Assembly: GCF_017306585.1 (NCBI RefSeq)
Contig: NZ_JAFKIC010000112.1
Location: 1-64,000 of the forward strand
Direction: 5' to 3'
DNA: 64,000 nt
Source: Mesorhizobium sp.
Lineage (GTDB): Bacteria; Pseudomonadota; Alphaproteobacteria; Rhizobiales; Rhizobiaceae
A program made the translations under genes and the position numbers. Positions 3-63,969 of this stretch are shown here, in pieces. The stretch's first letter is position 1. The number at the start of each line of letters is the position of its first letter. The notes beneath the pieces are model-generated. The model was not told where the DNA came from. It searched no databases and worked only from the letters and a program-made list of their open reading frames with translations.

Positions 3-1922
3 GCGTGCGACATCGTGCTGGTGACAGGCGACGCTTATGTCGACCATCCGAGCTTCGGCATGGCGATCATCGGGCGTCTGCTCGAAGCCCAGGGCTTCAG
101 GGTCGGCATCATCTCACAGCCCGATTGGCATTCGGCCGAGCCATTCACGGCCCTGGGCAAGCCAAAGCTGTTCTTCGGGGTCACCGGCGGCAACATGGAC
201 TCGATGGTCAACCGCTATACGGCGGACCGGAGATTGCGCCACGACGATGCCTACACACCCGGCGGCGAAGGCGGCAAGCGGCCCGACCGCTGCACCATCG
301 TTTATGCCCAGCGCTGCCGCGAAGCCTTCAAGGACGTGCCGATCGTTCTCGGCGGCATCGAGGCTTCGCTGCGCCGGATCGCGCATTTCGATTACTGGTC
401 CGAGAAAGTGCGCCGCTCGATCCTGGCGGACGCGAAAGCGGATCTGCTGCTCTATGGCAACGCCGAGCGGGCCGTTGTCGAAGTCGCGCATCGGCTCGCG
501 GCAGGTGATGCGCCGCGCGATCTCGATGATGTTCGCGGCGTCGCGCTGTTTCGCCGCGTGCCGGACAACTACACCGAACTGCACGCCGACGATCTCGATT
601 CCGCCGATGAAGGCGCGAGCCGCCAGTCCGGAGCGACGGTGATCCGGCTGCCGTCCTGCGAGCAGGTCGAGCAGGATAAAGAGGCCTATGCGCGCGCCTC
701 GCGCGTACTTCATCGCGAGGCCAATCCCGGCAACGCACGCGCGCTTGTGCAGCGTCATGGCGACCGCGATCTCTGGCTCAATCCGCCGCCGATCCCGCTG
801 ACATCAGACGAAATGGATTCCGTCTACGACCTGCCTTACGCCCGCGCGCCGCATCCGTCGTACGGCGATGCCAAGATTCCCGCATGGGACATGATCAAGT
901 TCTCAGTGACGATCATGCGCGGCTGCTTCGGTGGCTGCACCTTCTGCTCCATTACCGAGCACGAAGGCCGCATCATCCAGAACCGTTCCGAGCGCTCGAT
1001 CCTGCAGGAGATCGAACTGATCCGCGACAAGACGCCGGGCTTCACCGGCGTGATTTCCGATATCGGCGGCCCGACCGCCAACATGTACAGGATGGCGTGC
1101 AAGGACCCGAAGGTGGAAGCTGCCTGCCGTCTGCCCTCCTGCGTTTTCCCCGACATCTGCCCGAACCTGAACACCTCGCATGACGAGTTGATCAGCTTGT
1201 ATCGCAAGGTGCGCGAGACCAAGGGCATCAAGAAGGTGATGGTCGCCTCCGGCGTGCGCTATGATCTTGCGGTGAAAAGTCCTGAATACGTCAAGGAACT
1301 CGTCACGCATCATGTCGGCGGCTATCTCAAGATCGCGCCCGAGCACACCGAGCGCGGGCCGCTCGACAAGATGATGAAGCCCGGCATCGGCACCTATGAC
1401 AAGTTCAAGGAGATGTTCGACGCGGCCGCCAAGGAAGCCGGCAAGAAATACTATCTCATCCCGTATTTCATCGCCGCCCATCCCGGCACGACCGACGAGG
1501 ACATGCTGCATCTGGCGCTATGGCTGAAGAAGAACCGCTACCGCGCCGACCAGGTGCAGACCTTCCTGCCCTCGCCCATGGCCACCGCCACCGCCATGTA
1601 CCACACCGGCGTCAACACGCTGAAGGCGGTGCGGCGCGGCGCCACCGACAAGGTCGAGACCATTCGCGGCGGCCGCCAGCGCCGGCTGCACAAGGCTTTT
1701 TTGCGCTACCATGACCCCGACAACTGGCCGCTGCTGCGCGAGGCGCTGAAGGAGATGGGCCGCGCCGATTTGATCGGCCCCCGCCCCGAACAGCTCATCC
1801 CGGCCCACCAGCCGCCCGGCACCGGCAAGGCAGCGGGGACCAAGCGGCCCATGCGGCCGATCGGCAAAGGGCAGAGCTTCACCACCAAGGGCGTGCCGTT
1901 TCCAAAGAAATTGAACCGCTAA
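3..1922 (+). CDS. ygiQ: YgiQ-family radical SAM protein (5' end outside window)
   Basis: Radical SAM protein of the YgiQ family; the biochemical role of the family is not settled. The reading frame is open to the left edge and the residues before the first possible GTG (position 15) already fit the family ([18 protein letters not shown]), so the gene starts upstream. The 4Fe-4S cysteines lie in [11 protein letters not shown] (Cys codons at 924, 936 and 945, CxxxCxxC). The C-terminal third holds the family segment [18 protein letters not shown] and a basic, proline-rich tail. A diverged copy of nt 1722-1813 recurs downstream at 3187-3280, beyond the Rieske gene. Family call is confident; function is not inferred further. 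Confidence 0.93.
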
Positions 1923-2071
1923 CGGGCTATGGACGCCTTCGAAGAGGCCGCCGCGGAACGGCAGCTTCCCGCAAGCCCAGCCCTAACCCGCCATACCGGA
2001 AACGGCCCCGGGCTCTCGTGCGCCCGCGCCGAGCCGGAGCACTATGCGGCGGACAAGGACGCCACGGGCGA

Positions 2072-3133
2072 TCACAGCCCCAGTGCGGTCGCGACCCGTT
2101 CCTGGAAATACTGGACGCCCCGCTCATGCCGCCCCGAGAGCGGGCCGGAGCTATAGGCCCCCGCGGCATAGTTGCGATGCGTATCGGCGCAGATGGTGTA
2201 GTCCTCGCGCACCACGGCCAGGGTGCCTTGCACGGATTTCGCCCTGTTCTCGGCTGCTTCCGCGGAGGTGTCGGCAAAGAAGAAATGGTAGTGCTGGTCC
2301 GTGTGATGCGGTGAGGTCGGGTTGATCCGGCTGACGTTCATGCCGCCATCGAAAAGCGACAGCGTCCAGTTCGGCCACATCCAGAGCCATTTGCCGCGAT
2401 AGAACAGACCGTCTTTCGGCGGCGCGGTCATACGGACATAACCGGGGTGGGCGGTGGTCTGGAAAGCTTCGAAGTCGATGGCGGCGTAGAACGAGGGATG
2501 CGTGCCGGGGATGTGGTAGCCTTCGACGAAATTGTCGGTGTAGATCTTCCAGTTCGCCGCGAAGCTGACAGTGGCCTGATCGGTGGCGGCATAGGTCTCC
2601 AACGGCTCGTCCGCCAGTTCGGCAGGCAGGGAGCCGAGTTGATCGAGAAGACTTTCCTTCGGGTCGAGTGATGCGAAGAGCAGCCCGCGCCATTCGGACA
2701 ACTGCACCGTCTCCAGCGGCCAGTCCTCGGGAATGATCGCGGGATCCTTGCCATACCATGGGGCCTGCACCAGCCGTCCGGTGTCGGCAAAGGACCATTT
2801 GTGATAGGGACAAACGATCAGCCCGCATTTGCCCTCGCCGTCGGCCAGAAGTTTCGCCCCCCGGTGGCGGCAGACATTCTTGAATCCGCGCAAGGTCCCG
2901 TCCCGGCCCCGGATGGCGAAGACCGGCGTGCCGGCGATGTCGATGGCAAGGTATCGACCTGACGTCGCGACCGAGGCGACAGGCCCCATGAACTGCCAGG
3001 TGCGCGCGAAGATCTCGCGCCGTTCCTGCTGCCAGACATCATCGCGGACATAAAGCGACGGGTCCAGGTTCAGGTATTGCACGGGCGCGGTGTCGAGTGG
3101 CGGGTGGTCGCGTAGCAAGGCATCTGGCGTCAT
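2072..3133 (-). CDS. Rieske [2Fe-2S] aromatic-ring-hydroxylating oxygenase, alpha subunit
   Basis: A 353-residue oxygenase large subunit. The Rieske centre is CRH at residues 88-90 and CPYH at 108-111 (C-x-H...C-x2-H). The catalytic mononuclear-iron ligands are in DNFVEGYHIPGTHP (Asp200, His207, His212). Start chosen at the ATG at 3133 because GGAGG lies just upstream and the product begins MTPDALLRDH; a longer reading frame to 3184 has no such support. No ferredoxin or reductase gene is adjacent, so electron partners must be encoded elsewhere. Substrate cannot be told from sequence; related proteins act on aromatic or quaternary-amine compounds. The gene sits alone between ygiQ and a duplicated ygiQ 3' fragment, which suggests it arrived as a single-gene insertion. 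Confidence 0.88.
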   Translation of the reverse strand: MTPDALLRDHPPLDTAPVQYLNLDPSLYVRDDVWQQERREIFARTWQFMGPVASVATSGRYLAIDIAGTPVFAIRGRDGTLRGFKNVCRHRGAKLLADGEGKCGLIVCPYHKWSFADTGRLVQAPWYGKDPAIIPEDWPLETVQLSEWRGLLFASLDPKESLLDQLGSLPAELADEPLETYAATDQATVSFAANWKIYTDNFVEGYHIPGTHPSFYAAIDFEAFQTTAHPGYVRMTAPPKDGLFYRGKWLWMWPNWTLSLFDGGMNVSRINPTSPHHTDQHYHFFFADTSAEAAENRAKSVQGTLAVVREDYTICADTHRNYAAGAYSSGPLSGRHERGVQYFQERVATALGL

Positions 3134-3184
3134 AGGCTGGCCTCCATTTGCGGCGATCCTGTCGCAAGCGGGCCGACACCGCAA

Positions 3185-3290
3185 GGGAATTGGCTCTGCC
3201 GCGCACAGCCCTGAAGGAGATCGGCCGCGCCGACCGGATCAGCCCCGGCCCTGAACAGCTGATCCCCGCCCACCAGCCGCTTGTGAAGAA
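3185..3290 (+). pseudogene. Duplicated fragment of the ygiQ 3' region
   Basis: Translation gives ELALPRTALKEIGRADRIS followed by [12 protein letters not shown], closely matching the YgiQ segment encoded at nt 1717-1812 (same order, no internal gaps, roughly two thirds of residues identical). The fragment has no radical SAM domain and its downstream residues do not match the YgiQ tail. It lies on the same strand as ygiQ, separated from it by the Rieske gene, so the two copies are diverged direct repeats flanking about 1.4 kb. Read as a remnant, not an expressed gene. The rest of the 3134-3486 gap shows nothing else recognisable. Confidence 0.75.
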
Positions 3291-3486
3291 GTGTGGTGGA
3301 GGCGGGGTGTGCCTCTGTAGCGCACTCGCCAGCGTAGTTGACCTGCCGAGTGGCGGTTCGAGGCAGAGATCCGGCTTCGCCGGCAGCTTTGCTCCGCATC
3401 CCGGTCATTGCAGGATTTGAAACTCTCGCTCGATAACGGACATCGCAAGGTGCATCGGCCGGAAGGCTGAGTTAATCTATGCATGA

Positions 3487-4646: not shown

Positions 4647-5984
4647 TTACGGCCCATTCGGGCCATTCGCGGCCTCGCCTGGAGGCGAAGCCTCCCTTTG
4701 CATCACCGCCGCGAAGAAACCGTCCGTGCCATTGCGCGCCGGCGTCAGCGACAGGTGATCGCCATGCGCCGAGGCCGCCAGCCCCGGCGCGGCCTCCTCC
4801 AGCGGCACGACCCGAAAAGCGGGATGCGCCGCCAGGAACGCCGCCACCTGCTCCTCGTTCTCCTCCAGCAGCAGCGAGCATGTCGCGTAGACCAGCCGCC
4901 CGCCCGGTTTCACCAGGCGCGCGGCACTGGCCAGGATGCGGGCCTGCAGCGCCACGAGATTGTCCAGACCCTCTTCCTCCCGCGCCCGCCAGCGGGCATC
5001 GGGGTTGCGCCGCCAGGTGCCGGTGCCGCTGCAGGGCGCGTCGACCAGCACGCGGTCGAAGCCGGCCTTGTGGCGCTTGATCCACTTGTCCGTCTCGCTG
5101 GCCAGCAGCCTTGTCTCGATATTGTGCAGCCCTGCCCGCCGGAAACGCTCGGCGCTGCGCTTCAGGCGGCCCTCCATGACGTCGCAGGCGATGACATGGC
5201 CCTTGTTGTTCATCTGTGCGGCGATCGCCAATGTCTTGCCGCCGGCCCCGGCGCAGAAATCCACCACGCGCTCGCCCGGCCGGGCATCGACCAGCAGGGC
5301 GACAAGCTGCGAGCCCTCATCCTGAATCTCGGCCTCGCCGCTCTTCAGCATCGGCAGCCGCGCCAGCGAAACACGCTCGTCGAGGCGAATGCCGTGAGGC
5401 GCGATGGCCGAGGCCTGCGCCGCAAGGCCGAGATCGCGCAACGCGCCAAGCATGGCCTCCCGCATCGCCTTGATCGGATTGACGCGCAGGTCGAGCGGCG
5501 CCGGCGTCAGCAGCGCGGCCATCTCGCCCGCGAAGGCGCTCCCGAAACGCCGCCGCAGCGGACCGGCCGCCCAGGCCGGGCATTCCAGGCGCACCTCCTC
5601 CGGCATCCCTGCATGATCGATCGCGCCGCCCTGCAGCTTGACCAGCAGCGCGTGCTCCTGAGCCGTGAGCGCTGAGGGCGCGAACTTCGAGCCGTCGAAC
5701 AGCAGCTTGACCTGATCCGGCGTCCGGCCCTCCTTCAGCGCCAGCCAGGCCAGCAGCCGGTTGCGCGCCACATCCTCGCGCCCATGCCGCAAGAGCCACC
5801 AGCCAAGCCGAGCATGGTGCTGCAAAAGCGCATAAAGCAGCTCCAGGATCTGCCCGCGATCCCCCTCCCCAATCCCCCGCCGCGCCCGAAACCACGCCGA
5901 GACGACAGCATCCGCCGGCCGCGCGACGCTGTCGACTTCATGCATGAGTTCGAGGGTTGATTGCAGGCGGGCGGGGAGATTCAC
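4647..5984 (-). CDS. rsmB: RsmB-type 16S rRNA m5C methyltransferase (RsmB/NOP family)
   Basis: SAM-dependent RNA (cytosine-5)-methyltransferase, 445 residues. An N-terminal NusB-like helical region (1-130) precedes the methyltransferase fold. The SAM-binding loop VDFCAGAGGK is at 241-250. The two catalytic cysteines are in DAPCSGTG (motif IV, about 315-322) and ATCS (motif VI, 367-370). In E. coli RsmB methylates C967 of 16S rRNA; the same target is inferred, though other family members act on other RNAs. The start is GTG at 5984; no strong ribosome site is visible, and the ATG encoding MHEVDSV is a possible alternative. It is convergent with the DUF1835 gene and is the last typical housekeeping gene before the AT-richer retron island. 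Confidence 0.9.
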   Translation of the reverse strand: MNLPARLQSTLELMHEVDSVARPADAVVSAWFRARRGIGEGDRGQILELLYALLQHHARLGWWLLRHGREDVARNRLLAWLALKEGRTPDQVKLLFDGSKFAPSALTAQEHALLVKLQGGAIDHAGMPEEVRLECPAWAAGPLRRRFGSAFAGEMAALLTPAPLDLRVNPIKAMREAMLGALRDLGLAAQASAIAPHGIRLDERVSLARLPMLKSGEAEIQDEGSQLVALLVDARPGERVVDFCAGAGGKTLAIAAQMNNKGHVIACDVMEGRLKRSAERFRRAGLHNIETRLLASETDKWIKRHKAGFDRVLVDAPCSGTGTWRRNPDARWRAREEEGLDNLVALQARILASAARLVKPGGRLVYATCSLLLEENEEQVAAFLAAHPAFRVVPLEEAAPGLAASAHGDHLSLTPARNGTDGFFAAVMQREASPPGEAANGPNGP

Positions 5985-8896: not shown

Positions 8897-8908
8897 CACC
8901 TTATCCAA

Positions 8909-10263: not shown

Positions 10264-10551
10264 ATCCCCCTCACCTCCCCGGCGCAGCACTCAACTCACT
10301 GCGCCGCCACGCCGCCGGCGAGATTCCCACTGACCGCTTGAACTCCCGCCCGAAGTGATAGACGTCGCAGAAGCCGCAGGCTTCGGCCACTTCGGCCAGC
10401 GGCTGGTCGCCTTGCACCAGCAGGGACTGCGCCTGCATCAGGCGCTCGCACATCAGCCATTGGTGCGGCCTGCTGCGCAGATGTTTCTGGGACAGGCGGC
10501 GCAGTTGCGAGGGGCCGAGGCCGGTCACTCGGTCAGGTCAGGCGCGGTCCA
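10264..10551 (-). pseudogene. Duplicated 3' fragment of the AraC regulator gene
   Basis: These 288 bp match 16552-16840, the 3' end of the intact araC gene, with about 16 differences (roughly 94% identity). The fragment encodes the two-helix AraC DNA-binding domain (GPSQLRRLSQKHLRSRPHQ through SVGISPAAWRRSEL) but has no ligand-binding domain. Its upstream end is frameshifted by one base relative to the intact copy (GGTCACTCGG against GGTCACCTCGG). Both copies are on the minus strand, so they are direct repeats flanking the Crp/Fnr regulator and the LIV operon. Short expressed HTH fragments are possible but a non-functional remnant is more likely. Confidence 0.88.
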
Positions 10552-10591
10552 GTCCGCCGTTGGGCCGTCCGATGCATCAACATCGAACGCG

Positions 10592-11317
10592 TCAGAAAAC
10601 AGGGATCGGGGCGAGGTCCGTCGATTGGTATTGAGCCAGCCTCCGCAGACCCGCAAGGTCGGTCAGATCGATCAGGCGCGCGTTGCTGGTGACGAGATGT
10701 TCGGCACGCAGCTGTTGCATGACGCGATTGAGATGGGGCACGCTCAGGCCCAGCGCATCGGCCATGATTTCCTGCGAAAACGGCAGGTTGAAGCTCGCCT
10801 CGCCGGCCAGTCCAACCGCGAGGAGGCGCGCGTGGGTATCGAGCAGCAGCTGCGCCAGCCTTTCAATTGGCGTGCGCCGGCCCAGATTGACGATGTGTTC
10901 CGCGTAGGTCGCTGCCTCCTCGGCGGCGAGCCAGCTTAACACCAGGCCGAATTTCGGCTGCTCGTAGCAGAGACGAACATATGACGCGAATGGGCAGACA
11001 GCGTATGTCAGTTCGCTCACGGCGACGACGGCATAGCCGGACCGATCGAAAAAGCTGACGGGCAGCCCGACGACGTCGCCCGGCAGGATGAGCTTCAGGA
11101 TCTGCCTCTTGCCGCTGCGAAGCAGCCTGTAGCGGATCGCATAGCCGGCCTTGACGAAGCACAGGCTTCGGAACTCCGAGCCGTGAACGATGAGTTCCTC
11201 GCGCTTCTTGACGGAAAGATCGCGCTCGAAGATAGCCGCAAGGCTTTCGATCTCGGCCGCCTTCAGCCCCATCACACGTGTCAGGCGGGTCACGATCGGG
11301 TGGCCGGTCAGCGGCAT
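10592..11317 (-). CDS. Crp/Fnr-family transcriptional regulator
   Basis: A 241-residue regulator: an N-terminal cyclic-nucleotide-binding-like beta-roll (about 20-130, with LILPGDVVGLPVSFF) and a C-terminal winged helix (about 150-225) with recognition region EIMADALGLSVPHLNRVMQQL. The FNR iron-sulphur cysteine pattern is absent and the recognition helix has neither the FNR ExxSR nor the CRP RExxGR residues, so effector and site are unknown. It is divergent from the LIV operon, with a 225-bp shared upstream region holding a 9-bp-arm inverted repeat and an FNR-box-like element. It probably controls that operon and perhaps itself (inference). Start is ATG 11317. Confidence 0.85.
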   Translation of the reverse strand: MPLTGHPIVTRLTRVMGLKAAEIESLAAIFERDLSVKKREELIVHGSEFRSLCFVKAGYAIRYRLLRSGKRQILKLILPGDVVGLPVSFFDRSGYAVVAVSELTYAVCPFASYVRLCYEQPKFGLVLSWLAAEEAATYAEHIVNLGRRTPIERLAQLLLDTHARLLAVGLAGEASFNLPFSQEIMADALGLSVPHLNRVMQQLRAEHLVTSNARLIDLTDLAGLRRLAQYQSTDLAPIPVF

Positions 11318-11345
11318 GCCAGTTTTCCAGGCGTCATGGTGGCGA

Positions 11346-11400
11346 AACTTTCGTACGCTTATTAATCTGGATCAATCAATAGGATCATCAAACGAAAGTT
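11346..11400. promoter_or_regulatory. Inverted repeat enclosing an FNR-box-like element
   Basis: AACTTTCGT (11346-11354) and its exact reverse complement ACGAAAGTT (11392-11400) flank an AT-rich core. Inside the core, TTAAT-CTGG-ATCAA (11362-11375) matches the FNR/Anr consensus TTGAT-N4-ATCAA at nine of ten positions. The site is 30-85 bp upstream of the Crp/Fnr start codon and about 140-200 bp upstream of the LIV binding-protein gene. The match to an FNR box is seen in sequence; which regulator binds is inference, since the neighbouring Crp/Fnr protein lacks FNR-type recognition residues. Confidence 0.5.
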
Positions 11401-11542
11401 GTATTGACGATCCCGCTCCCGCCGCCGCGAATGCCCCCTGTGGGCAGGCCGCGTCTTTCGCCGCCTTGCCTGGGAAGAGTTCGCAATCTGGGAACAACGA
11501 CGAGAGCCATCGGATGGCTCCGAGGGCGAGGAGGAGCAATCT

Positions 11543-12892
11543 ATGCCGCTGGACGATAAAGACACCGCCAACATATCCCGCCGCACCGTATTGCATGCCG
11601 GCGCCGCCGTTCTTGGCGGCGCGTTTCTGCCTGGTTTCAGCGTGGCGGCTTTCGCCGACGACAAGCCGGCGATCGGCACCTGGCCGGCCGGGTCGGCTGG
11701 CGACACCGTCTATATCGGCGCCGCGGTGCCGCTCACGGGCGCCTATGCGCTGCAGGGCGCCGACGAGCTCAAGGGCTGGCAGCTTGCCGTCGAGCATATC
11801 AACAACGGCCACGATTTGATGAAGGCCATGGCGCCGAAGGTCGACAAGGGGCTGCTCGGCAAGAAGGTGGAGCTGTTGTCCGCCGACAGCGCGGCCAAGC
11901 CAAATCAGGCCGTCGAGGTGGAGCAGAACTACATCAACCAGAACAAGATCATCCTGATGACCGGTTCGACGTCGTCGGCGGTCGCCGTCGCGCTGAACAA
12001 ATTCGCCCAGCGCGAGAAGGTTCTCTATGTCGCGGGCATTTCCGGCTCGAACGACACGACCGGCAAGGATTGCGTCCGCTACGGCTTCCGCCAGAACCTC
12101 TTCGGCCAGACCTCGGCCGCCGCGATCGGCCCGGTGCTCCTCAAGCAGTTCGGCAAGAACAAGAAGGCGGCGTTCATGACGCCGGACTACACTTACGGCC
12201 ACACCGTCACCAAGTCGGTGAACGACTACCTGACCTCGGAGGGCGGCTGGGAGATGGTGACCAACCAGATATCCCCCCTCGGCACCCAGGACTTCAGCCA
12301 GTATCTCACCAACATCGCCAATTCCGGCGCCGAGTTCCTCATCAACGTCAACTGGGGCCGCGACGCGGTGCTGTCGTCGCAGCAGGCCAAGCAGTTCGGC
12401 CTCCTGCCCAACATGAAGCTCGTCATCCCCTACCAGATTCCGTTCCTGGCCAAGGAAGTCGGCCCGGAGATCACCGAGGGTGTTTTCGCCGCCACCGATT
12501 TCTGGTGGACGCAGGAGGACCAGTATCCGCTGGCCAAGCAGTTCGTCGAGGCTTTCCAGGCCAAGTTCGGCTACCGGCCGGAATGGGGGGCCGAGAACAG
12601 CTATGTCAGCTTCGCCCACTGGGCCCGCATGGTTTCGGAAGCAGGCAGCTTCTATCCGCCTGACATCATCAAGCAGTACGAGAAGGGCGAGACCATTCCC
12701 TCGCTTCTGGGCGATGTCCACTACCGGCCCGAAGACCACCAGTGCATCCGTCCCGTCGTCATCGTGCGCGGCAAGGCCAAGAAGGACATGAAGAACGACG
12801 AGGACTTCTGGGAGGTGCTCGAAGTCGTCCCCGGCGAAGGCCTGATGCAGAAGCCGGATGCGTTCGGTTGCCAGCTCGGCGACTACCTCTGA
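11543..12892 (+). CDS. LIV-type ABC transporter periplasmic binding protein
   Basis: A 449-residue type 1 periplasmic binding protein of the branched-chain amino acid/amide/urea family. It has a twin-arginine-like export signal (NISRRTVLHAGAAVLGGAFL), so Tat secretion is likely. Mature sequence begins near DDKPAIGTWPAG and contains VYIGAAVPLTGAYALQGADE, the usual first strand and ligand loop. ATG 11543 is preceded by GAGGAG (from 11530). It is the first gene of the operon with the permease, fused permease-ATPase and broken livF downstream. The substrate cannot be assigned: this family carries amino acids, amides, urea and aromatic acids. Confidence 0.88.
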   Translation: MPLDDKDTANISRRTVLHAGAAVLGGAFLPGFSVAAFADDKPAIGTWPAGSAGDTVYIGAAVPLTGAYALQGADELKGWQLAVEHINNGHDLMKAMAPKVDKGLLGKKVELLSADSAAKPNQAVEVEQNYINQNKIILMTGSTSSAVAVALNKFAQREKVLYVAGISGSNDTTGKDCVRYGFRQNLFGQTSAAAIGPVLLKQFGKNKKAAFMTPDYTYGHTVTKSVNDYLTSEGGWEMVTNQISPLGTQDFSQYLTNIANSGAEFLINVNWGRDAVLSSQQAKQFGLLPNMKLVIPYQIPFLAKEVGPEITEGVFAATDFWWTQEDQYPLAKQFVEAFQAKFGYRPEWGAENSYVSFAHWARMVSEAGSFYPPDIIKQYEKGETIPSLLGDVHYRPEDHQCIRPVVIVRGKAKKDMKNDEDFWEVLEVVPGEGLMQKPDAFGCQLGDYL

Positions 12893-12903
12893 TCGCCACC
12901 CGC

Positions 12904-12932
12904 GCCTTCTCCGTCGCAAGGGCGGAGAAGGC
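12904..12932 (+). terminator. Stem-loop between binding-protein and permease genes
   Basis: A perfect 10-bp stem GCCTTCTCCG/CGGAGAAGGC with a 9-nt loop starts 11 bp after the binding-protein stop codon. There is no U-tract, so it is more likely an mRNA-stabilising or attenuating hairpin than a full terminator; such hairpins commonly keep binding-protein levels above permease levels. It resembles the palindromic repeats common between rhizobial genes. A second small stem GCCGC/GCGGC follows at 12951-12963. Confidence 0.55.
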
Positions 12933-13079
12933 TTGTCCCGTGACTGGAAAGCCGCTTCGCGGCAGAGTGCGCCCGCCATCCGCCGATGGTGATCGGCTAT
13001 CGAAAGCGCGCCGGTTTGCTGTCATGATGACGGCGACGGGCACCCCTGGATTCACATCAATCTCAAAGCGGGCGGCAGC

Positions 13080-13955
13080 GTGATAAACTGGGCCAACTTC
13101 ATTTCGCAATGTTTCAACGGACTGGTGCTCGGCGCGCTGCTGGCGCTGATCTCATCGGGCCTGACGATCATCTATGGCACGCTGGGCGTGCTCAACCTGG
13201 CGCATGGGGCGATGTTCATGCTCGGCGGCTATGCCGGCTGGCTCGCCTATAGCTACACCGGTTCCTACCTCGCCGCCGTCGTCGCCGGCTCGCTGTTCGT
13301 CATGGTGGTCGGCGTGGTCATGGAGCGGCTGATCATCCGCCATTTCTACACGCGGCCGCAGGAGGACCAGCTTCTCGTCACCTTCGGCCTCGTTATCGTT
13401 TTCGTCGAGGCTGTGCGCTTTTTCTTCGGCAGCATGTCGCAGACCTTGCCGCCGCCGGCGCCGCTGGTGGGCATCACCAATCTGGGCTTCATGATCTATC
13501 CCACCTACCGGCTGGCATTGCTCGGCATCGTCGCCGTCGCGCTGCTGGTTCTCTACTTCGTTCTCTACCGCACCCGCATCGGCATGATCGTGCGCGCCGG
13601 CATCGAGGATTCGGGGATGGTCGATTCGCTCGGCATCGACGTCTACAGGATCTTCATGCTGGTGTTCGGCATCGGAGCCATGGCGGCGGGCTTTGCCGGC
13701 GTCGTCAACGCGCCGGTGGTATCGATTGCTCCCGATGTCGGCGAAGCGATCCTGGTGCAGACTTTCGTGGTCGTCGTCATCGGCGGCGTCGGCTCTTTCC
13801 CCGGGGCCATTATCGGCGGCCTCATCGCCGGCGAGATCATATCGATCACCTCGATGTTCAATCCGGGCTACTCCTACATCATGCTGTTCGTGGCCATGAC
13901 GCTGGTGCTGGTGATCCGTCCGCACGGGCTGCTTGGCCAGGCCGGTCGTGAATAG
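13080..13955 (+). CDS. LIV-type ABC transporter permease (LivH family)
   Basis: A 291-residue inner-membrane permease with about eight hydrophobic segments. Family marks are GLTIIYGTLGVLNLAHGAM near the N-terminus, RAGIEDSGMVDSLGIDV (the cytoplasmic loop that contacts the ATPase, about 165-182) and GGVGSFPGAIIGGLIAGEI near the C-terminus. The start is GTG at 13080 (MINWANFISQCFNGLVLGA); no better in-frame start fits the family N-terminus. It follows the binding-protein gene by 187 bp containing stem-loops and is followed 10 bp later by the fused permease-ATPase gene. Confidence 0.9.
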   Translation: MINWANFISQCFNGLVLGALLALISSGLTIIYGTLGVLNLAHGAMFMLGGYAGWLAYSYTGSYLAAVVAGSLFVMVVGVVMERLIIRHFYTRPQEDQLLVTFGLVIVFVEAVRFFFGSMSQTLPPPAPLVGITNLGFMIYPTYRLALLGIVAVALLVLYFVLYRTRIGMIVRAGIEDSGMVDSLGIDVYRIFMLVFGIGAMAAGFAGVVNAPVVSIAPDVGEAILVQTFVVVVIGGVGSFPGAIIGGLIAGEIISITSMFNPGYSYIMLFVAMTLVLVIRPHGLLGQAGRE

Positions 13956-13965
13956 GGCGTCCTTC

Positions 13966-15801
13966 ATGCGGATCACACGCCCCTACCTGATCGAGCTGAT
14001 CACCGCCCTGGCGCTGATACTCGCGCCATTCGTTCTTCCCCATCTCGGCTTTTCGCCCAGCACCATCAACCGCATCCTGATCTGGGGCCTGTTCGGGCTC
14101 GGCTTCGATATACTGTTCGGCTACACCGGACTGCTGTCGTTCGGCCAGTCGGCCTTCTACGGCACGGGCGGCATGTTCGCCGCCTACCTGCTCACCGAGG
14201 CCGGCTTCGACCACGTCATGGTCGCCATCATACTCGGCGCGGTGGTGGCCGGCGTGGTTGGTTACTTCATCGGCCTGATAGCGCTGCGGCGCACCGGCAT
14301 CTATTTCGCCATGATCACGGTGGCGATCGCCGAGGTTTTCTTCTTCGTCGAGTTCAACCCGCTGTCGGCATTCACCGGCGGAGAGAACGGGCTGCCGGGC
14401 GTGCCGACGCCGACCTTTAATCTCGGCTTCACCGTGCTGAAGTTCAACACCGACTGGTCGATGTATGGCTTCCTGGCGTTCTGGTATTTCGTCGGCATCG
14501 TGATTGCGCTGCGCATCGTGCGCTCGCCGGTCGGAGCGATCCTGTCGGCGATCCGTGACAATCCGCGGCGCGCGGAGGCACTCGGCCACAACATCCACGG
14601 CTACAAGCTGACGGCCTTCGTGGTGGCCGCGATCTATGCCGGTTTTGCCGGCGGCCTGCTCGGCGTCATGCAGGGCTTCATGCCGCCGGACGCCTTCATG
14701 TTCGACACATCAGGCCAGCTTGTCATGCAGACGGCCATCGGCGGCGCCGGCACATTGTTCGGACCGTTGCTTGGCGCGACGGTCTGGCTCTATCTCAGCG
14801 ACTTCTTCCAGAACACCTTGCATCTGGGAGCGACGTGGAAGCTGGTGCTCGGCATCGTCTTCGTGCTGCTGGTCTGCTTCCTGCGGCGCGGCATTGTCGG
14901 CGCGATGGTCGACCTCTACGCACTGGCGGCCGGCGGCGGGAACGAGGAGCCAGCCGGCGCCTCGGCCGGGAGCCCGCCCTTCGACCCCGCTGCCATAGAA
15001 CCGATGCCGCCGCGCCGGCGTGGCGATGCGCCGGCATCCGGACCGATCCTGCGGGCGCAAGGCCTCAGCAAGCGCTATGGCGGCATCGTGGCCAACAGCG
15101 ACATCGACTTCACGGTCGATCATGGCGAGATACGCGGCATCATAGGGCCGAACGGCGCCGGCAAGAGCACCTTCTTCAAGATGCTGACCTGCGAGGTCGC
15201 TCCGACCTCCGGGCAGATCACGTTCGAAGGCCGCGACATCACCGGCATGGACGTATCCGCTGTGTGCCAGCTCGGACTGACCAAGAGCTACCAGATCAAC
15301 CAGCTGTTCGACCGGCTGACGGTCCGGCGCAACCTGACGATCGCGGCGCTCGGCGAAACACGCGGCCGCTTCCGGCTCGACCTGTTCAAGAACCTGCATG
15401 GCGTGCCGGGCCTCGACGAACAGGTCGAGCGGACGGCGGCGCTGGTCAACCTCACCGCGCGTCTCGACCGGCCGGTTTCGGAGCTGCCCTATGGCGAAAA
15501 GCGCCGGCTGGAAATAGGTCTGGCGCTGGCGACGTCGCCAAGCCTGCTTTTGCTCGACGAGCCGCTGGCCGGCATGAGCCCGCGCGAACGCGTCGAGACC
15601 GTGGCGCTGCTCAAGTCGATCGCGCGCGGACGCACGATGATCATCATCGACCACGACATGGATTCGCTGTTCGAGCTGGTCGGGAAAGTGACGGTGCTGC
15701 AGGAAGGCCGGGTGCTGGTCGAAGGCATGCCCGCTGAGATCAGGACCAACGCCAAGGTGCAGGAAGCCTATCTCGGTGGCGTGCACGGAGAGATGGCATG
15801 A
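13966..15801 (+). CDS. Fused LIV-type permease (LivM) and ATPase (LivG)
   Basis: A 611-residue fusion. Residues 1 to about 310 are a LivM permease (hydrophobic segments, the loop RDNPRRAEALGHNIHGYKL and the GGAGTLFGPLLGA segment). A proline/alanine linker (about 325-360) leads to a LivG ATPase: Walker A GPNGAGKS, signature LPYGEKRRLEIGLAL (ordinary LSGG replaced by LPYG, usual for LivG), Walker B LLLLDEPLAGMS and the H-loop IIIDHDMD. ATG 13966 is chosen; an upstream TTG at 13933 overlaps the previous gene. It overlaps livF by four bases. The same fusion occurs in the second LIV operon of this window. Confidence 0.9.
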   Translation: MRITRPYLIELITALALILAPFVLPHLGFSPSTINRILIWGLFGLGFDILFGYTGLLSFGQSAFYGTGGMFAAYLLTEAGFDHVMVAIILGAVVAGVVGYFIGLIALRRTGIYFAMITVAIAEVFFFVEFNPLSAFTGGENGLPGVPTPTFNLGFTVLKFNTDWSMYGFLAFWYFVGIVIALRIVRSPVGAILSAIRDNPRRAEALGHNIHGYKLTAFVVAAIYAGFAGGLLGVMQGFMPPDAFMFDTSGQLVMQTAIGGAGTLFGPLLGATVWLYLSDFFQNTLHLGATWKLVLGIVFVLLVCFLRRGIVGAMVDLYALAAGGGNEEPAGASAGSPPFDPAAIEPMPPRRRGDAPASGPILRAQGLSKRYGGIVANSDIDFTVDHGEIRGIIGPNGAGKSTFFKMLTCEVAPTSGQITFEGRDITGMDVSAVCQLGLTKSYQINQLFDRLTVRRNLTIAALGETRGRFRLDLFKNLHGVPGLDEQVERTAALVNLTARLDRPVSELPYGEKRRLEIGLALATSPSLLLLDEPLAGMSPRERVETVALLKSIARGRTMIIIDHDMDSLFELVGKVTVLQEGRVLVEGMPAEIRTNAKVQEAYLGGVHGEMA

Positions 15802-16496
15802 GCCTGCTCGAGGTCAGCGGACTGAACAGTTACTACGGCGACAGCCACATCCTCTTCGACGTCGGGCTGAAGGTCGAACAGAACGAGGTGGTGGCGCTGC
15901 TTGGCCGCAACGGCGCCGGCAAGTCGACGACGCTGAAGAGCCTGATGGGCGTGGTGACGCCGCGCACCGGTTCGGTCAAGCTCGATGGCGTCGAGCTGGC
16001 GGGCCGCAAGGCGCACGGCATCGCCCGCCAGGGCATGCAGCTGGTGCATGAGAACCGGCGCATCTTCGGCAGCCTGAACGTCGAGGAAAACATCATCCTG
16101 GCTGGTTTGACCGCCGCCCACCGTTGGCCGCTGGAGCGCATCTATACGATGTTCCCGCGCCTGAAGGAGCGGCGCACCAGCCGCGGCACGGATCTGTCGG
16201 GCGGCGAGTAGCAGATGCTGGCCATAGCCCGCGCCTTGGTGCGCGACCCGAAGATCATCCTTCTCGACGAGCCCTTCGAAGGGCTTGCGCCCGTGATTGT
16301 GCACGACCTCGTCCGCGCCTGCCGCGAATTGGCGCAGGAAGGGCAGACGATCGTGCTGGTGGAGCAGAACCTCGCCGCGACGTTGGCGCTCGCCAGCCGC
16401 GTCTATATCATCAACAACGGTCACATCGTTTACGAGGGATTGGCTGCCGAGCTGAAAGCGCAGCCGGGACTGCTGCAACAATATCTCGGCGTATGA
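15798..16496 (+). pseudogene. LivF-type ABC ATPase interrupted by an in-frame amber codon
   Basis: A 232-codon LivF ATPase frame: Walker A GRNGAGKS, then DLSGGE followed by TAG at 16209-16211, then QMLAIARAL in the same frame, Walker B IILLDEPFEGLAP and the normal end QQYLGV. The family sequence is LSGGEQQMLAIARAL, so the TAG replaces one Gln codon (CAG to TAG, one base). The stop removes Walker B, so an unsuppressed product would be inactive. All other parts look intact and undecayed. Explanations are a recent nonsense mutation, amber suppression or a sequencing error. If real, the transporter needs another LivF, such as the one at 49533-50225. Confidence 0.85.
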
Positions 16497-17410: not shown

Positions 17411-17589
17411 GATGCGCGTTTTATACAAAACAAGCGCCTTGCTGTCCATTTTGTTCGCCACGGGGCGCCGCTATGGTCGCTTTCATGAGGTCGGGGATTT
17501 CGGCACGCCGCCGCGAGAATCCCCGGATTTTCAGGGTTTTCCGGGCGCTCGGCGCCGTCGGCGGCCCGATGGTTCAGGGAGGCAGAACG

Positions 17590-59068: not shown

Positions 59069-59476
59069 TTACACCGGCAGCGTCGGCTCGGTGTTAACCT
59101 CCAGCGCTTCTTCGGCCTCATCATCGTCCGGGAGCGTGTCGCCGTGCACATCGAGCGGCCGGCCGATCCAGACAGGGTCGACCAGATGGTCGCGCCTGGG
59201 ATTGCTGGTGTTGGGATGGATGAGGATGCTGAGCCCTTTATGATTCAGCATCAGCCACGGGACGAACGAGCCGAAAATCTCTTTGGCGAAGGAGACCTGG
59301 TACATCGCCTGGTCATGCGGGCCGACCTTGCGGTCGTGCCAGTTGCCGAGCCGCACGCGAAAACGCTCGCCGATGCGAAGCCGCAGCCACTCGGCATGCT
59401 GCCGCTCGGCCTGCCCGTCGAAATAGATATGGGCATGATAGCTGGCGATCTCGCCAAGCGGCCTGACGTCGTTCAT
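59069..59476 (-). CDS. DOPA 4,5-dioxygenase-like protein
   Basis: A 135-residue cytosolic protein of the DOPA 4,5-dioxygenase family: [32 protein letters not shown] and [17 protein letters not shown] carry the conserved histidines. In fungi and plants the family opens catechol rings; bacterial members are common and poorly studied. ATG 59476 has AAGGAA upstream. The acidic tail ([10 protein letters not shown]) is variable. Confidence 0.8.
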
Positions 59477-59766: not shown

Positions 59767-60081
59767 AACCCTGACAACGCAGCCAGCCAATTCCGCTGCC
59801 GCTCTCGGCAATGTGTATGGCCGACATCTCGGTCTTCCCCTATCAACGACGCAGCTTTTCCAAGGCCCCGGACAGCCCCGTCCGGGGAAGAAACGTATCC
59901 GACGCGTTAACTGGGAGGGGTTGGGGGGTAGACAGGCATTGCGGCCGCCATTGATCCGCGAGCAGCGGAGGCGATGGTCATTGGTGCCTGGGGACGCGAG
60001 CGCGAGGCGCGCAAGGCGAGCGGCGGCGTCCATCATCCACAATCCGGCAATCAACACCGACCACTGAGCGGGGCTGGTCAC

Positions 60082-60573
60082 ATGTCGTTTGTTGTATTCG
60101 TTCTCATCTTCGCATTCATCGCCTGGCAGAGGCTGGGCCGGAGCCGGCGCGCGCGAAAATTCGTCCAGCCGGAGGCAGCCCGCCCGCAACCGCCCACTCC
60201 GCAACCATCAGCCACGCAACGCTCGGCCACTCAACCCTGGGCATTGTCAGGCGATGCCGGGGCCGAGGACATCGCCGCCGATGTCGCCGGGCTGGTCTCG
60301 ACCTTCCTCGGCCAGAACAGCCGCGACCTGATCGAGCAGGCCGTCAGCCTCGCCGTCAACGAATCCAGAGAATCCAGGGCCGGCCGCAGGCTAGCCGTGG
60401 CGATGGAGCCGATCGAGAAGGCGATTATGGCGAAGAAGACGGCCGTGCCGCCGCGCGAAAAGCGGCGGGCGAAATATCTGCTCGACGGCGACGGCGGCTA
60501 CCGGCAGCGCACCGATCGCACCGCCCGGCTGCAGCAACAATTCGGCGGCAAGGGTCTCTGCTCGCCGCGCTAA
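60082..60573 (+). CDS. Membrane-anchored protein of unknown function
   Basis: A 163-residue protein with a short N-terminal membrane anchor (MSFVVFVLIFAFIAWQ), then a Pro/Gln/Ser-rich linker (about 30-55) and a helical region (DIAADVAGLVSTFLGQNSRD) with a basic C-terminal tail (PPREKRRAKYLLDGDG). No family recognised. It lies 58 bp upstream of the SPFH-like gene and probably belongs to the same transcript. ATG 60082 is chosen because it starts the hydrophobic segment. Confidence 0.6.
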   Translation: MSFVVFVLIFAFIAWQRLGRSRRARKFVQPEAARPQPPTPQPSATQRSATQPWALSGDAGAEDIAADVAGLVSTFLGQNSRDLIEQAVSLAVNESRESRAGRRLAVAMEPIEKAIMAKKTAVPPREKRRAKYLLDGDGGYRQRTDRTARLQQQFGGKGLCSPR

Positions 60574-60631
60574 CGCATTTCCACATCAACAGGCACCGGG
60601 CGCGCGCCCATAGCAACCGAGGAGTGAAAAC

Positions 60632-61465
60632 ATGGCAATCACCAGACAGGTCATCACGTCGCTGCAGCGCGACGGCACGGACGCGCTCGGCACCAGGACC
60701 GTGGCGATGAAGATCGTCGACGAGAGCATCGTCTCGGGCTCGCTGCTGACGGTGGAAAGCAACCATTTCTGCATCCTGAAGTCGCGCGGCGCCGTGCTCA
60801 ACGTCTACGAGACCGGCCAGTACGCGCTGCAGACGCCGGACAAGCCGCTGGTCGGCTCGGTCGTGCAGGGCTTCTTCGGCGGCTCCTCGCCCTGGGTCTA
60901 CGAGGTCATCTACATCAACCGCTCGAAGCTGCTCGTACGCAACGAGGGCGTCGCCACATCGGCCGAAATGGCGGAGATGTCCTATGTCGTCGACTACTAC
61001 ATCCACATCGACAGCAAGGAAGAGGCGCTCGATCTCATCACCCACATGCCGTTCGCGGGCGCGGTGATCGACACCAAGGAGATCGCCGACTATGCCGGGC
61101 CGGCGATCGAGCAGGCGATCAACCAGATCATCCAGGTCACCAAGATGGAAAACGTCAACGAACGCATCAGCGACGTGCGCGAGGCGGTGAAGGCTCACCT
61201 CACCGATTTCCTCAAGGTTTACGGCATCATGCTGAACGACCTGAAAGTGCTGATCATGCCGCGCGACGAGCGCATGCGCGAACTGATCTCGCTTCAGGCG
61301 ATCGGCCTTACCCCGATCGAGGCGGTGCGCTATTACCTGGCGCTGCGCATGGCCGACAAGGGCCTGGTCTCCGCTCCCAACGCGGCGGCCGGCGTTCCCT
61401 TCTTCATCGGCGGCCAGCCGACCGGCTTCTATCCCTTGGGCGATGAAGTGGGCGCCACCAGATGA
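60632..61465 (+). CDS. SPFH/band-7-like protein
   Basis: A 277-residue protein with SPFH-like features: an initial beta-rich half (ILKSRGAVLNVYETGQYALQ, then SSPWVYEVIYINRSKLLVRN) and a helical half (VNERISDVREAVKAHLTDFL). No N-terminal membrane helix, unlike flotillins. Ribosome site GAGGAG upstream of ATG 60632. The ATGA overlap with the next gene (61462) shows the two are translated together and likely act as a complex. Similar proteins act in membrane organisation or stress; no further function claimed. Confidence 0.7.
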   Translation: MAITRQVITSLQRDGTDALGTRTVAMKIVDESIVSGSLLTVESNHFCILKSRGAVLNVYETGQYALQTPDKPLVGSVVQGFFGGSSPWVYEVIYINRSKLLVRNEGVATSAEMAEMSYVVDYYIHIDSKEEALDLITHMPFAGAVIDTKEIADYAGPAIEQAINQIIQVTKMENVNERISDVREAVKAHLTDFLKVYGIMLNDLKVLIMPRDERMRELISLQAIGLTPIEAVRYYLALRMADKGLVSAPNAAAGVPFFIGGQPTGFYPLGDEVGATR

Positions 61466-61998
61466 GCCGCTTCTACGAGGCCGGGCCGCTCGCCAGGGTC
61501 GGGATCAACCTGTTCTACGGCTATGGCTATAATTTCTACCGCCAGGAGAACCAGCTGCGGGCCGACGACCAGCGCGTGCGCCAGATGGCGTGCTCGCTGC
61601 TCGGCCGGGCGCGGACCGGCCTCGACGAGGCCGAGGCGAGCTACCGCCGCGAGAACATCGCCCCGCCCACCCGCGCCAACCCTTTCCCGGACGCCGCGAT
61701 CGTCGCCAACGCCCAGGCGCTCGAACGCCTGGGCCGCGAGGTCGGCGCGCTGGAAGGCCAGATCCGCCACCAGCCGGTGCCGGAAAACGACCGCATGGCC
61801 CAGCGGTATCGGCAGGAAGCCGCCACCCTCGCCGCTTTGGCGGAGAAGGACGCGGTGCTGGTCGGCCAGGCGGAGCTTCTGCGCTCGATGCTGGAAGGCG
61901 TGGCGGCGGATACAATCCTTGCGGGCAAACGCGAGATCGAAGAGGGAGTTGTGGCGATCACGGCGACGTTGCGGGAGCGGCAGACGTTCTTGCTGTGA
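61462..61998 (+). CDS. Hypothetical alpha-helical protein, partner of SPFH-like gene
   Basis: A 178-residue protein, mostly helical after residue 30 and likely a coiled coil (QALERLGREVGALEGQIRHQ; LLRSMLEGVAADTILAGKRE). The N-terminus has aromatic-rich NLFYGYGYNFYRQEN. Overlaps the SPFH-like gene by four bases. A copy of its last 110 bases recurs at 63843-63969, beyond greA/ocd. No named family; an interaction with the SPFH-like protein is inferred from coupling. Confidence 0.65.
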   Translation: MSRFYEAGPLARVGINLFYGYGYNFYRQENQLRADDQRVRQMACSLLGRARTGLDEAEASYRRENIAPPTRANPFPDAAIVANAQALERLGREVGALEGQIRHQPVPENDRMAQRYRQEAATLAALAEKDAVLVGQAELLRSMLEGVAADTILAGKREIEEGVVAITATLRERQTFLL

Positions 61999-62058: not shown

Positions 62059-62541
62059 CTAGGAAATGGATAGAATCTCAAGCTCGCGCGGGCCCAGCTG
62101 GACAATGTCGCCAACGCTTTTGCCGATGAGCACGATGGCAACCGGTGAGCCATGCGAGATGGAAGCCTGGGACGGATTGGCCTCATCCTCGCCGACGATG
62201 CGGAAGGTCTGGGTGCGGCCATCATCCCGCGCGAAGGTGACGGTGTGTCCGAAGGCGATCGCCTCATTGGACGCCGGCGCCGGCATGAGCTGCGCCGTAC
62301 GGACGCGCTCGGCATAATAGGTGACATCCCGAACCGGAACCGCCGACTGCCGTCGCCTCTCATTGACATCTTCCAGCACGCTGGCAGCGTCCAGAGCCTG
62401 CCGGGCGCGCGCCAGTTCATCCCTCAGCATCTCGAGACCCGTCTCGGTGACGAGGTTGATGCGATCGGAGATGGGGCGAGCCGGCAGGATGGTTTCCGAT
62501 GCCGCCTCCGCACTTTCCTCCTTGGCAAAGGCTACGCTCAA
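62059..62541 (-). CDS. GreA/GreB-family transcription factor
   Basis: A 160-residue protein. The N-terminal coiled coil (about 25-75, VTETGLEMLRDELARARQAL, then VNERRRQSAVPVRD) is followed by the FKBP-like C-terminal domain (about 85-155, FGHTVTFARDDGRTQTFRIV and SPVAIVLIGKSVGDIVQL). The start is TTG at 62541: GGGAG stands ten bases upstream and MSVAFAKEESAEA fits rhizobial relatives. GreA proteins rescue backtracked RNA polymerase. It is the cargo, with the ornithine-cyclodeaminase gene, between the copies of the 61.5-kb gene 3' end. Confidence 0.82.
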   Translation of the reverse strand: MSVAFAKEESAEAASETILPARPISDRINLVTETGLEMLRDELARARQALDAASVLEDVNERRRQSAVPVRDVTYYAERVRTAQLMPAPASNEAIAFGHTVTFARDDGRTQTFRIVGEDEANPSQASISHGSPVAIVLIGKSVGDIVQLGPRELEILSIS

Positions 62542-62777: not shown

Positions 62778-62834
62778 GGTGCGGTTCGGCTCTCATGCGC
62801 GGCGGCCGTTTGACGATCCACTGGAAATGACTTG

Positions 62835-63827
62835 ATGCACGATCGACCCCCTGTTGCTGAAAGATCGGTTTCTGAAACATTGGCCACCGAAACCCTGCCC
62901 TATCTGACATCGACGCTTCTCGACCGGCTGGAGATCTCCACGAAGGACATGGTCGACGAGATCGAGCGCCAGATATCGGGCCAGCGCCGGGGCGAAGTCT
63001 GGTGCGCGCCCAAGGCCGTGGTGCTGCCGGGCGACGACCGCTACATCATGGCGACGCTCGGCGTGTCTTCAGAGCCGCCGGTGCTCGCCACCAAGTCGCT
63101 GGTCGTCAACCCCGGCAATGCCCAGCGCGGCCTGCCGACGCTGAATTCGCTGATCACCCTGCTCGACGCCGAGACCGGCCTGCCGCTCGCCCTGGTCGAC
63201 GGCAACTGGGTGACGGAGAAGCGCACGGCGGCCTTGAGCGCCGTCGCCGCCCGGCGCATGGCGCGGCCCGACGCCTCCTCCCTCGCCTTCATCGGCTGCG
63301 GGGTGCAAGCGCGTGGACATTTAGAGGCCTTCGCCGACCTCTTCCCCTTGCGCGAAATCCGCGCCTACGGCCGGGGCGCCGCCAACCGCGACGCCCTATG
63401 CGACATGGCGCGAGCGCGCGGCCTCGAAGCGATCCCCTGCGAGGAGCCGAGGCAAGCGCTCGAAGGCGCCGACATGGTGGTGACATCGGTGACCCTGGTG
63501 CCCAGACCCACCCCCTTCCTCGACGCCACCTGGCTGAAACCAGGCAGCTTCGCCGTGATGACCGACCAGGCCCTGCCCTGGCTGCCCGAAACCATGACCC
63601 GCTTCGACCGCATCATCGTGGATGATCTGGAGCAGGAGAAAAACATGGCCAAGCCGATGATCGACCCCGCCATGGCCGCCGGCGATTTGACGGGGCTGGT
63701 ATGCGGGGATTTTGCGGGAAGGCAAAGCGCGCAGGAGACGACGGCGTTCGTGTTCCGGGGGCTGGCTGTGGGGGACTTGGCGGTGGCGGGGTTGGTGTAT
63801 GGGAGGACGAAGGGGGTTGGGGTGTAG
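62835..63827 (+). CDS. Ornithine cyclodeaminase / mu-crystallin family protein
   Basis: A 330-residue NAD(P)-dependent enzyme family member. N-terminal substrate-binding parts include KAVVLPGDDRYIMATLGVSS and VDGNWVTEKRTAALSAVAAR (the catalytic Lys/Arg region), followed by the Rossmann loop LAFIGCGVQARGHLEAF (about 155-171) and a C-terminal VCGDFAGRQSAQETTAFVFRG. Members include cyclodeaminases, ketimine reductases and alanine dehydrogenases; which activity applies is unknown. ATG 62835 is preferred over TTG 62832. Confidence 0.85.
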   Translation: MHDRPPVAERSVSETLATETLPYLTSTLLDRLEISTKDMVDEIERQISGQRRGEVWCAPKAVVLPGDDRYIMATLGVSSEPPVLATKSLVVNPGNAQRGLPTLNSLITLLDAETGLPLALVDGNWVTEKRTAALSAVAARRMARPDASSLAFIGCGVQARGHLEAFADLFPLREIRAYGRGAANRDALCDMARARGLEAIPCEEPRQALEGADMVVTSVTLVPRPTPFLDATWLKPGSFAVMTDQALPWLPETMTRFDRIIVDDLEQEKNMAKPMIDPAMAAGDLTGLVCGDFAGRQSAQETTAFVFRGLAVGDLAVAGLVYGRTKGVGV

Positions 63828-63842
63828 GCAAGGTCGGGAAGG

Positions 63843-63969
63843 GGGAACTGCTGCGCTCGATGCAGGAAGACGCCGTGATGCGATCCTGGCCGGCAAGCGC
63901 GAGATCGAGGCGGGGATTGGCGCGATCACGGCGGCGACGTTGCGGGAGAGGCAGACGTTTTTTGTGTGA
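63843..63969 (+). pseudogene. Duplicated 3' fragment of the 61.5-kb gene
   Basis: Translation gives DAILAGKREIEAGIGAIT then AATLRERQTFFV and a stop, matching the end of the gene at 61462-61998 (DTILAGKREIEEGVVAITAT, LRERQTFLL). The DNA copies align over about 115-125 bases, with a few substitutions and small indels that disturb the upstream frame. Both copies are in the same orientation and flank the greA/ocd segment (about 1.85 kb). A non-functional remnant; the last 31 bases of the window follow it. Confidence 0.8.

What the first reader, a model, noticed from the sequence alone, without database searches (positions are those of the whole stretch)
1722..63969. Three modules flanked by direct repeats of a neighbouring gene's 3' end
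At three unrelated places in 64 kb the same architecture recurs: an intact gene abuts a cargo segment by its 3' end, and a 3'-terminal fragment of that gene, in direct orientation, sits on the far edge of the cargo. The cases are ygiQ (cargo: Rieske oxygenase), araC (cargo: Crp/Fnr plus LIV operon) and the SPFH-partner gene (cargo: greA plus ocd). Repeats range from about 95 to 290 bp and differ in divergence, so the events are of different ages. This is what Campbell-type integration of circular DNA carrying a 3' gene fragment would give, or a mobile process targeting gene ends. No integrase or transposase gene is seen in any of the three. A recombinase-free gene-acquisition route that uses gene 3' ends would be of general interest.
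Basis: partly seen in the sequence, partly recalled or inferred. Interest (0 to 1): 0.75.

Follow-up and report, generated by a model that had tools for sequence, protein, structure and literature searches.

The report
Insertions duplicating neighbouring gene 3' ends
In a soil bacterium (Mesorhizobium) foreign gene blocks sit between a whole gene and a broken second copy of that gene's tail; two of the three cases look like insertions that copied a piece of the local gene by general DNA repair and recombination, the third is an old shared remnant, and nothing shows a machine aimed at gene ends.

Summary
The three repeat pairs are real: ygiQ 1731-1815/3196-3280 (84%), araC 16554-16841/10266-10552 (93%), SPFH-partner 61860-62000/63832-63971 (78-82%). 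They do not share one history. A (ygiQ/Rieske) and B (araC/crp-liv) are insertions: relatives show the empty site without cargo and fragment. The araC tails are clearly each other's closest kin; for ygiQ the evidence is weaker (70 bp, tree support 0.90). C differs: the fragment behind the ornithine cyclodeaminase gene (OCD) is shared by several species, including ones without the intact gene, and is not closest to the window's own gene. No tyrosine-integrase match lies on this contig. 5' fragments exist too (7 genes with 3' versus 6 with 5' fragments in 3.27 Mb), so aiming at gene 3' ends is not supported, although at these three loci all terminal fragments are 3'. Most telling is relative G080: its ygiQ/rsmB interval holds three stacked cargo blocks separated by two copies of one joint, rsmB-3'|ygiQ-3', with 2 bp overlap. 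Best reading: alleles of integrase-less hotspots stacked by one end-joining joint plus one homologous exchange. New member of a known kind.

The parts
15..1922 (+). intact ygiQ (radical SAM), left anchor of hotspot A
   Evidence: Pfam Radical_SAM_N, Radical_SAM, DUF3362; 85-87% to relatives L004-L022
1923..2003 (.). 80-bp filler, 85% like a stretch elsewhere in the own genome (C269:19284-19364)
2004..3210 (-). Rieske oxygenase cassette (ORF 2072-3184), 90-94% to copies at other loci in relatives
3211..3300 (+). decayed ygiQ 3' fragment (copy of 1746-1815, internal deletion, native end); exact right end by eye
4647..5984 (-). rsmB/F methyltransferase, right (convergent) anchor of hotspot A
   Evidence: Pfam PF01189; convergent neighbour of ygiQ about 58 bp away in M. 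erdmanii
10266..10552 (-). decayed araC 3' fragment
10592..16496 (.). crp(-) plus liv operon(+) cargo; found, whole or in part, at other loci in 17 of 119 genomes searched
16559..17461 (-). intact araC-type regulator
   Evidence: Pfam HTH_18, AraC_binding
59974..61998 (+). SPFH operon; 61462-61998 is the partner gene whose tail is repeated
62059..62541 (-). greA-like gene
   Evidence: Pfam GreA_GreB
62832..63827 (+). OCD (ornithine cyclodeaminase/mu-crystallin)
63832..63971 (+). decayed partner 3' fragment, junction with OCD shared with G009, G029, G039

Best explanation
A and B are insertions at integrase-less chromosomal hotspots. A piece of DNA carrying cargo and (inferred) the tail of the local flanking gene was joined to the chromosome by one end-joining joint and one homologous exchange. 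Either the piece first closed into a circle and entered by a single crossover, or one end recombined and the other was joined to a sister chromosome. The product is intact gene - cargo - joint - gene tail - native downstream DNA; the redundant tail then decays. Donor and recipient were (inferred) alleles of the same lineage. The same event class can stack whole hotspot alleles, as at ygiQ/rsmB in G080. C is a hotspot of the same sort, but its fragment is an old inherited remnant. 3' tails prevail here (inference) because the clearest hotspot lies between convergent genes and because only events leaving one whole gene copy survive. Shown: repeats, empty sites, the araC tails' kinship, joints, no tyrosine integrase on the contig. 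Inferred: circle or linear intermediate, Ku, donor, order of events.
For: Empty sites: M. erdmanii (L213), G112 and G034 have ygiQ and rsmB convergent 48-58 bp apart; in G004, G026, G036, G080, G086, G089 and G108 ygiQ is followed at once by a weak match (74-76%) to window ~3286-3416, seen aligned for G004, G108, G089 and others. G037 has araC about 26 bp from the homologue of window 10151-9431. Tails: araC tails 93% to each other versus 85-87% for fragment against seven relatives; ygiQ FULL+FRAG sisters, support 0.90, long branch on FRAG (70 bp). G080: three cargo blocks, two copies of joint rsmB-3'|ygiQ-3' (763-bp unit, 91%), 2-bp overlap at the joint (by eye), near-whole rsmB at the far end. 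Joint of A shows no overlap against relatives' Rieske edge (by eye). Own genome has 4 Ku matches. Geometry: 7 of 7 3' fragments lie downstream and 5 of 6 5' fragments upstream of their gene. Precedent: in E. coli 56 of 60 clones gave the PCR product for a lacZ-end duplication, confirmed as 109-950 bp in 14 sequenced, ascribed to re-circularisation plus single crossover (PMC3240628, passages and section 12 read). Fewer than half (45%) of hotspots encode an integrase (PMC5635113, passages read).
Against: No genome was found with the assumed donor allele (ygiQ directly followed by Rieske, or araC by liv). In raw identity the intact ygiQ tail is nearer to some relatives (up to 90%) than to its fragment (87%), so A's local origin rests on a short tree. 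B has one clear empty site. In G120 the Rieske cassette lies beyond rsmB, inverted and beside an inverted rsmB piece, so local rearrangement is possible. The joint at 10552 has about 30 bp of unknown origin. The two G080 joints are copies of one joint although the cargo differs, so further recombination is needed. The Ku role is untested.
Confidence: 0.5

Rival explanations
1. Decayed integrase-type islands with attachment sites in gene 3' ends (like e14 in icd, recalled); the integrase was lost.
For: Architecture is that of such islands. 5' breakpoints of two araC tails (window 16841, G112 16844) lie within 3 bp of each other, and two ygiQ breakpoints (about 1746 and 1756) within about 10 bp. 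In the single-gene surveys terminal fragments are 3' only.
Against: No PF00589 match on C81 nor within the fetched hotspot stretches of G039, G065, G009, G050, G029, G084, G038; no recombinase among the 27 Pfam-scanned proteins save one IS66 transposase in G039 (not all ORFs were scanned). The araC tails are local kin. 5' fragments exist elsewhere. Repeat lengths vary.
Confidence: 0.13
2. Tandem duplication of a gene tail plus neighbour by end joining between sister chromosomes, then loss or allelic replacement of cargo in one copy.
For: Gives the same joints; G080's repeated unit looks like duplication followed by divergence.
Against: In A and B what follows the fragment is the empty-site sequence, without a second copy of the cargo, so a precise later loss would be needed.
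Confidence: 0.27
3. Unrelated remnants: fragments and cargo were gained independently and only look alike.
For: True for C: the fragment is shared with species lacking the intact gene. Deletion can also leave a tail (araC in G112).
Against: For A and B cargo and fragment are absent together (A: several relatives; B: one clear case, G037) and the araC tails are closest kin.
Confidence: 0.1

Closest known systems
Integrase-less HGT hotspots (Oliveira et al. 2017, PMC5635113; abstract and passages seen)
   Same: variable cargo between conserved flanking genes, mobility genes often not seen, recombination in flanks proposed
   Different: the model as I understand it exchanges cargo through the flanks; here a joint and a gene-tail duplicate remain
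Single-crossover insertion-duplication after re-circularisation (PMC3240628; passages and section 12 read)
   Same: partial duplication of a gene end (109-950 bp) beside foreign DNA
   Different: laboratory plasmid in E. coli; here natural, chromosomal and old
Homology-facilitated illegitimate recombination (same paper)
   Same: one homologous and one illegitimate end, joints with little or no homology in its 4 E. coli clones
   Different: usual product is a deletion, not a duplication
e14/icd-type islands in gene 3' ends (recalled)
   Same: intact gene, cargo, displaced 3' fragment
   Different: integrase and core site; neither found here

Membership tests
Integrase-type genomic island in gene 3' end | recombinase gene in or next to the element | tested here: not met
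   PF00589 over whole genomes: 10 matches in own genome, none on C81; other recombinase families not searched genome-wide
Integrase-type genomic island in gene 3' end | fixed attachment core at both ends, displaced copy native and gene tail element-borne | tested here: inconclusive
   araC tails are mutual closest kin, ygiQ tails sisters on a 70-bp tree only; two breakpoint near-coincidences remain
Integrase-less HGT hotspot | variable cargo between conserved flanks | tested here: met
   ygiQ-rsmB interval about 48, 49, 58, 275, 864, 1017, 2724, 3738, 5163 and 16814 bp in ten genomes that I chose; region C between 59070-59464 and ~69475 varies among relatives compared
Integrase-less HGT hotspot | raised homologous recombination in flanking core genes | not tested
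   no strain-level set of one species was available
Single-crossover (Campbell-type) insertion-duplication | direct repeat of the crossover gene around the cargo, absent together in relatives | tested here: met
   A and B; not met for C
Single-crossover (Campbell-type) insertion-duplication | joint between the two ends of the inserted piece | tested here: inconclusive
   clear in G080 (rsmB-3'|ygiQ-3'); in the window the joint is seen but not its donor
Single-crossover (Campbell-type) insertion-duplication | RecA dependence, Ku/LigD-made joint | not testable with these tools
   4 Ku matches in the genome show only that it is possible

The most novel reading that the evidence does not exclude
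Mesorhizobium chromosomes gain genes by a recombinase-free route: linear DNA of sister alleles is closed or joined by end joining and then stacked at hotspots through homology to the tail of the flanking gene, making tandem arrays of cargo blocks separated by fused gene tails (ygiQ/rsmB in G080), with each joint a datable scar.
Probability: 0.3. Interest if true: 0.65.

Novelty: new member of a known kind. Interest (0 to 1): 0.4.

Why it matters
How cargo enters the many hotspots that lack integrases is an open question. Gene-tail scars such as these, and above all the stacked ygiQ/rsmB array, record single events with both breakpoints visible, so the roles of end joining and homologous exchange could be counted over a genus rather than guessed.

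Tried and rejected
One common event class for all three cases: rejected because C's fragment is shared by descent. 3'-end targeting: not supported, since 5' fragments exist (small samples). Result against me: within the single-gene surveys (partner, araC, ygiQ) no 5'-only fragment was found; I ascribe this to locus geometry and shared descent, untested. Foreign circle bearing its own tail: unlikely for araC, open for ygiQ. Integrase remnant: none found on the contig. The near-coincidence of breakpoints (araC 16841/16844; ygiQ about 1746/1756) stays unexplained. Some alignment rows were useless because loci matching on the minus strand were sliced in the wrong orientation: L004, L007, L012, L015; L023, L027, L029; L064-L068. 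They are not used.

Literature: of seven paper runs that ran I saw listings only; no listed title or abstract start describes gene-tail scars at natural hotspots (one search gave no paper, 67 and 72 one paper each, not on the subject by title and abstract start). Searches failed on term format. PMC3784515 (merodiploids in pneumococcus): outline and abstract seen. The S. meliloti paper on end joining and uptake of foreign DNA (PMC6379672) is not held and was seen only as a reference in PMC10932983 (passages). One search used a DOI guessed from memory and returned an unrelated paper, unused.
Full report
OBSERVATION. The window is the first 64 kb of contig C81 (82,015 bp) of a 7.09-Mb genome. Named loci fetched include Mesorhizobium erdmanii, whose contig has the same length (42,405) as G050:C28, so the genus is taken to be Mesorhizobium. 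Whole-genome E-values of 3.9e-18, 4.1e-119 and 3.7e-25 exclude chance. In each case the intact gene faces the cargo with its 3' end.

CASE A, ygiQ / Rieske. In seven of the genomes listed (G004, G026, G036, G080, G086, G089, G108) the ygiQ end is followed at once by a weak match (74-76%) to window ~3286-3416; the alignment shows it for G004, G108, G089, G086 and G070 (4 of its 10 relative rows were sliced in the wrong orientation and are not used). In M. erdmanii ygiQ and rsmB are convergent neighbours about 58 bp apart. From the ygiQ-rsmB interval measures about 48, 49, 58, 275, 864, 1017, 2724 (window), 3738, 5163 and 16814 bp in ten genomes. These are 9 of the 10 genomes I chose for (in G139 the genes lie on different contigs) plus M. 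erdmanii. This is a hotspot. In the window the interval holds an 80-bp filler that resembles C269 of the own genome, a Rieske cassette (2004-3210) that is 90-94% identical to copies elsewhere in other species, and a ygiQ tail beginning at ~3211 with an internal deletion of about 107 bp followed by the native end. On a 70-bp tree tail and intact gene are sisters (FastTree support 0.90; branch lengths 0.18 and 0.04). By raw identity the tail is closest to the intact gene (87%, relatives at most 86%), but the intact gene is nearer to some relatives (up to 90%); so local origin is likely, not proved. The intact gene shows no step in identity along its length that would mark a foreign tail, apart from a drop in its last ~90 bp against a few relatives. 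In G120 the interval has about 275 bp and no tail copy was found; there a Rieske cassette lies about 1.2 kb beyond rsmB, inverted, beside an inverted rsmB piece, so local rearrangement may have supplied the cargo.

CASE B, araC / crp-liv. In G037 araC stands about 26 bp from the homologue of window 10151-9431, an empty site; this is the only clear empty site for B. The two window tails are 93% identical to each other; the fragment is 85-87% to G037, G084, G106, G112, G120, G138 and G139. The fragment has decayed (a 1-bp deletion among others). Among 146 genomes 20 others have a near-full araC; besides the window's, tails alone are seen in G112 (284 bp, fused to the rest of a gene homologous to window 23910 onward, so left by deletion) and G069 (154 bp, cause not examined), plus a weak 70% piece in G099.

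CASE C, SPFH partner / greA-OCD. The interval between 59070-59464 and ~69475 is a second hotspot; relatives carry glycosyl- and sulfotransferases (G065), YcaO, peroxidase and IS66 (G039) or a type III polyketide synthase and ABC genes (G009) there. The junction OCD-stop / partner tail is shared by the window, G009, G029 and G039, with remnants in G050 and (34 bp) G084, and not detected just behind OCD in G104, G106, G112 and G021. G029 and G084 have no intact partner gene. The window tail is 82% identical to the window's own partner but 87-88% to the genes of G009 and G069 and to a G039 fragment. So this fragment was not copied from the neighbouring gene when the cargo arrived. In 146 genus genomes, partial partner copies of about 75 bp or more were 10 3'-terminal, 3 in two parts, 3 internal and 0 5'-only (the many ~30-55-bp matches elsewhere were dropped). 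Several are related by descent, so this is not 10 events.

IS IT AIMED AT 3' ENDS? I scanned 1.83 Mb of this genus, window included (1361 genes of 450 bp or more), and 1.44 Mb around ygiQ in 80 named records (987 genes) for partial gene copies within 15 kb. One search gave 16 rows, one search gave 7. Counting direct copies by gene: 3' for 7 genes (the three given cases, G084 x3, L230) and 5' for 6 genes (G084 x3, L260, L261, L268). Dropped before this count: 2 internal direct genes, 3 inverted rows and the reciprocal pair L238. Without the three given cases the count is 4 versus 6. L230 and L268 (64-67% in part) may be decayed tandem paralogues. All seven 3' copies lie downstream and five of six 5' copies upstream of the intact gene, which is what insertion with flanking duplication must leave if one whole gene copy is to survive. 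At least one G084 case is a phage terminase gene. Gene calling was my own simple method. Against this stands that the three loci of the finding, surveyed over 146 genomes, show terminal fragments of the 3' kind only.

THE MOST TELLING RELATIVE. G080 has ygiQ, block X1 (~1 kb), joint, X2 (~2.4 kb), joint, X3 (~12 kb), then a near-whole rsmB. Each joint fuses an rsmB 3' half (homologous to window 4678-5136) to a ygiQ tail from window position 1756 onward; the two joint units (763 bp) are 91% identical, and X1 and X2 share only 52 bp at their rsmB edge. At the joint the parents overlap by 2 bp (TG, read by eye). So blocks bounded by ygiQ tail and rsmB tail, as one allele of the hotspot would be, are strung head to tail. 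Circularised or end-joined pieces entering by homology, or tandem duplication followed by cargo exchange, both give this. Among the 146 genomes only G000 and G080 show ygiQ tail copies.

MECHANISM. Best reading: one end-joining joint plus one homologous exchange. Precedent: in E. coli 56 of 60 such clones gave the duplication product (109-950 bp in 14 sequenced), ascribed to partial degradation, re-circularisation and single crossover (PMC3240628). The own genome has 4 Ku matches; end joining in a rhizobium is documented (PMC10932983, passages). Steps not shown: the donor allele, the intermediate, the enzymes.

VERDICT. Observation confirmed; interpretation partly supported. A and B are ordinary-kind hotspot insertions with an informative scar; C is a remnant.

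Noticed in passing
6352-8908 (-): Low-GC (about 53%) island with a retron type III-A: reverse transcriptase (PDLC02944, E 2.9e-155) and PRTase/winged-helix partner (PDLC02933, E 3.9e-98). The ncRNA was not sought.
   Followed up: partly
15798-16496 (+): livF of the inserted operon is split into two ORFs in one frame by a stop near 16211, so the cargo itself seems to be decaying.
   Followed up: no
L131 (G080:C1:4996001-5014000): Three stacked cargo blocks between ygiQ and rsmB with two copies of one rsmB-3'|ygiQ-3' joint.
   Followed up: yes
16841 (window) and G112:C1:2751980: Two araC tails in different species begin within 3 bp of each other; the ygiQ tails of the window and G080 begin within about 10 bp. 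Unexplained.
   Followed up: partly
L132:2933-4540: 535-aa ORF combining AAA kinase-like and adenylosuccinate synthetase domains, inside hotspot C to the right of the window.
   Followed up: no
29828-35425 (-): 1865-aa autotransporter with passenger repeats.
   Followed up: no
1-5984: ygiQ/rsmB lies within 17 kb of araC here, but in G112 ygiQ/rsmB and the araC tail are about 190 kb apart: a rearrangement, with the retron island between them in the window.
   Followed up: no
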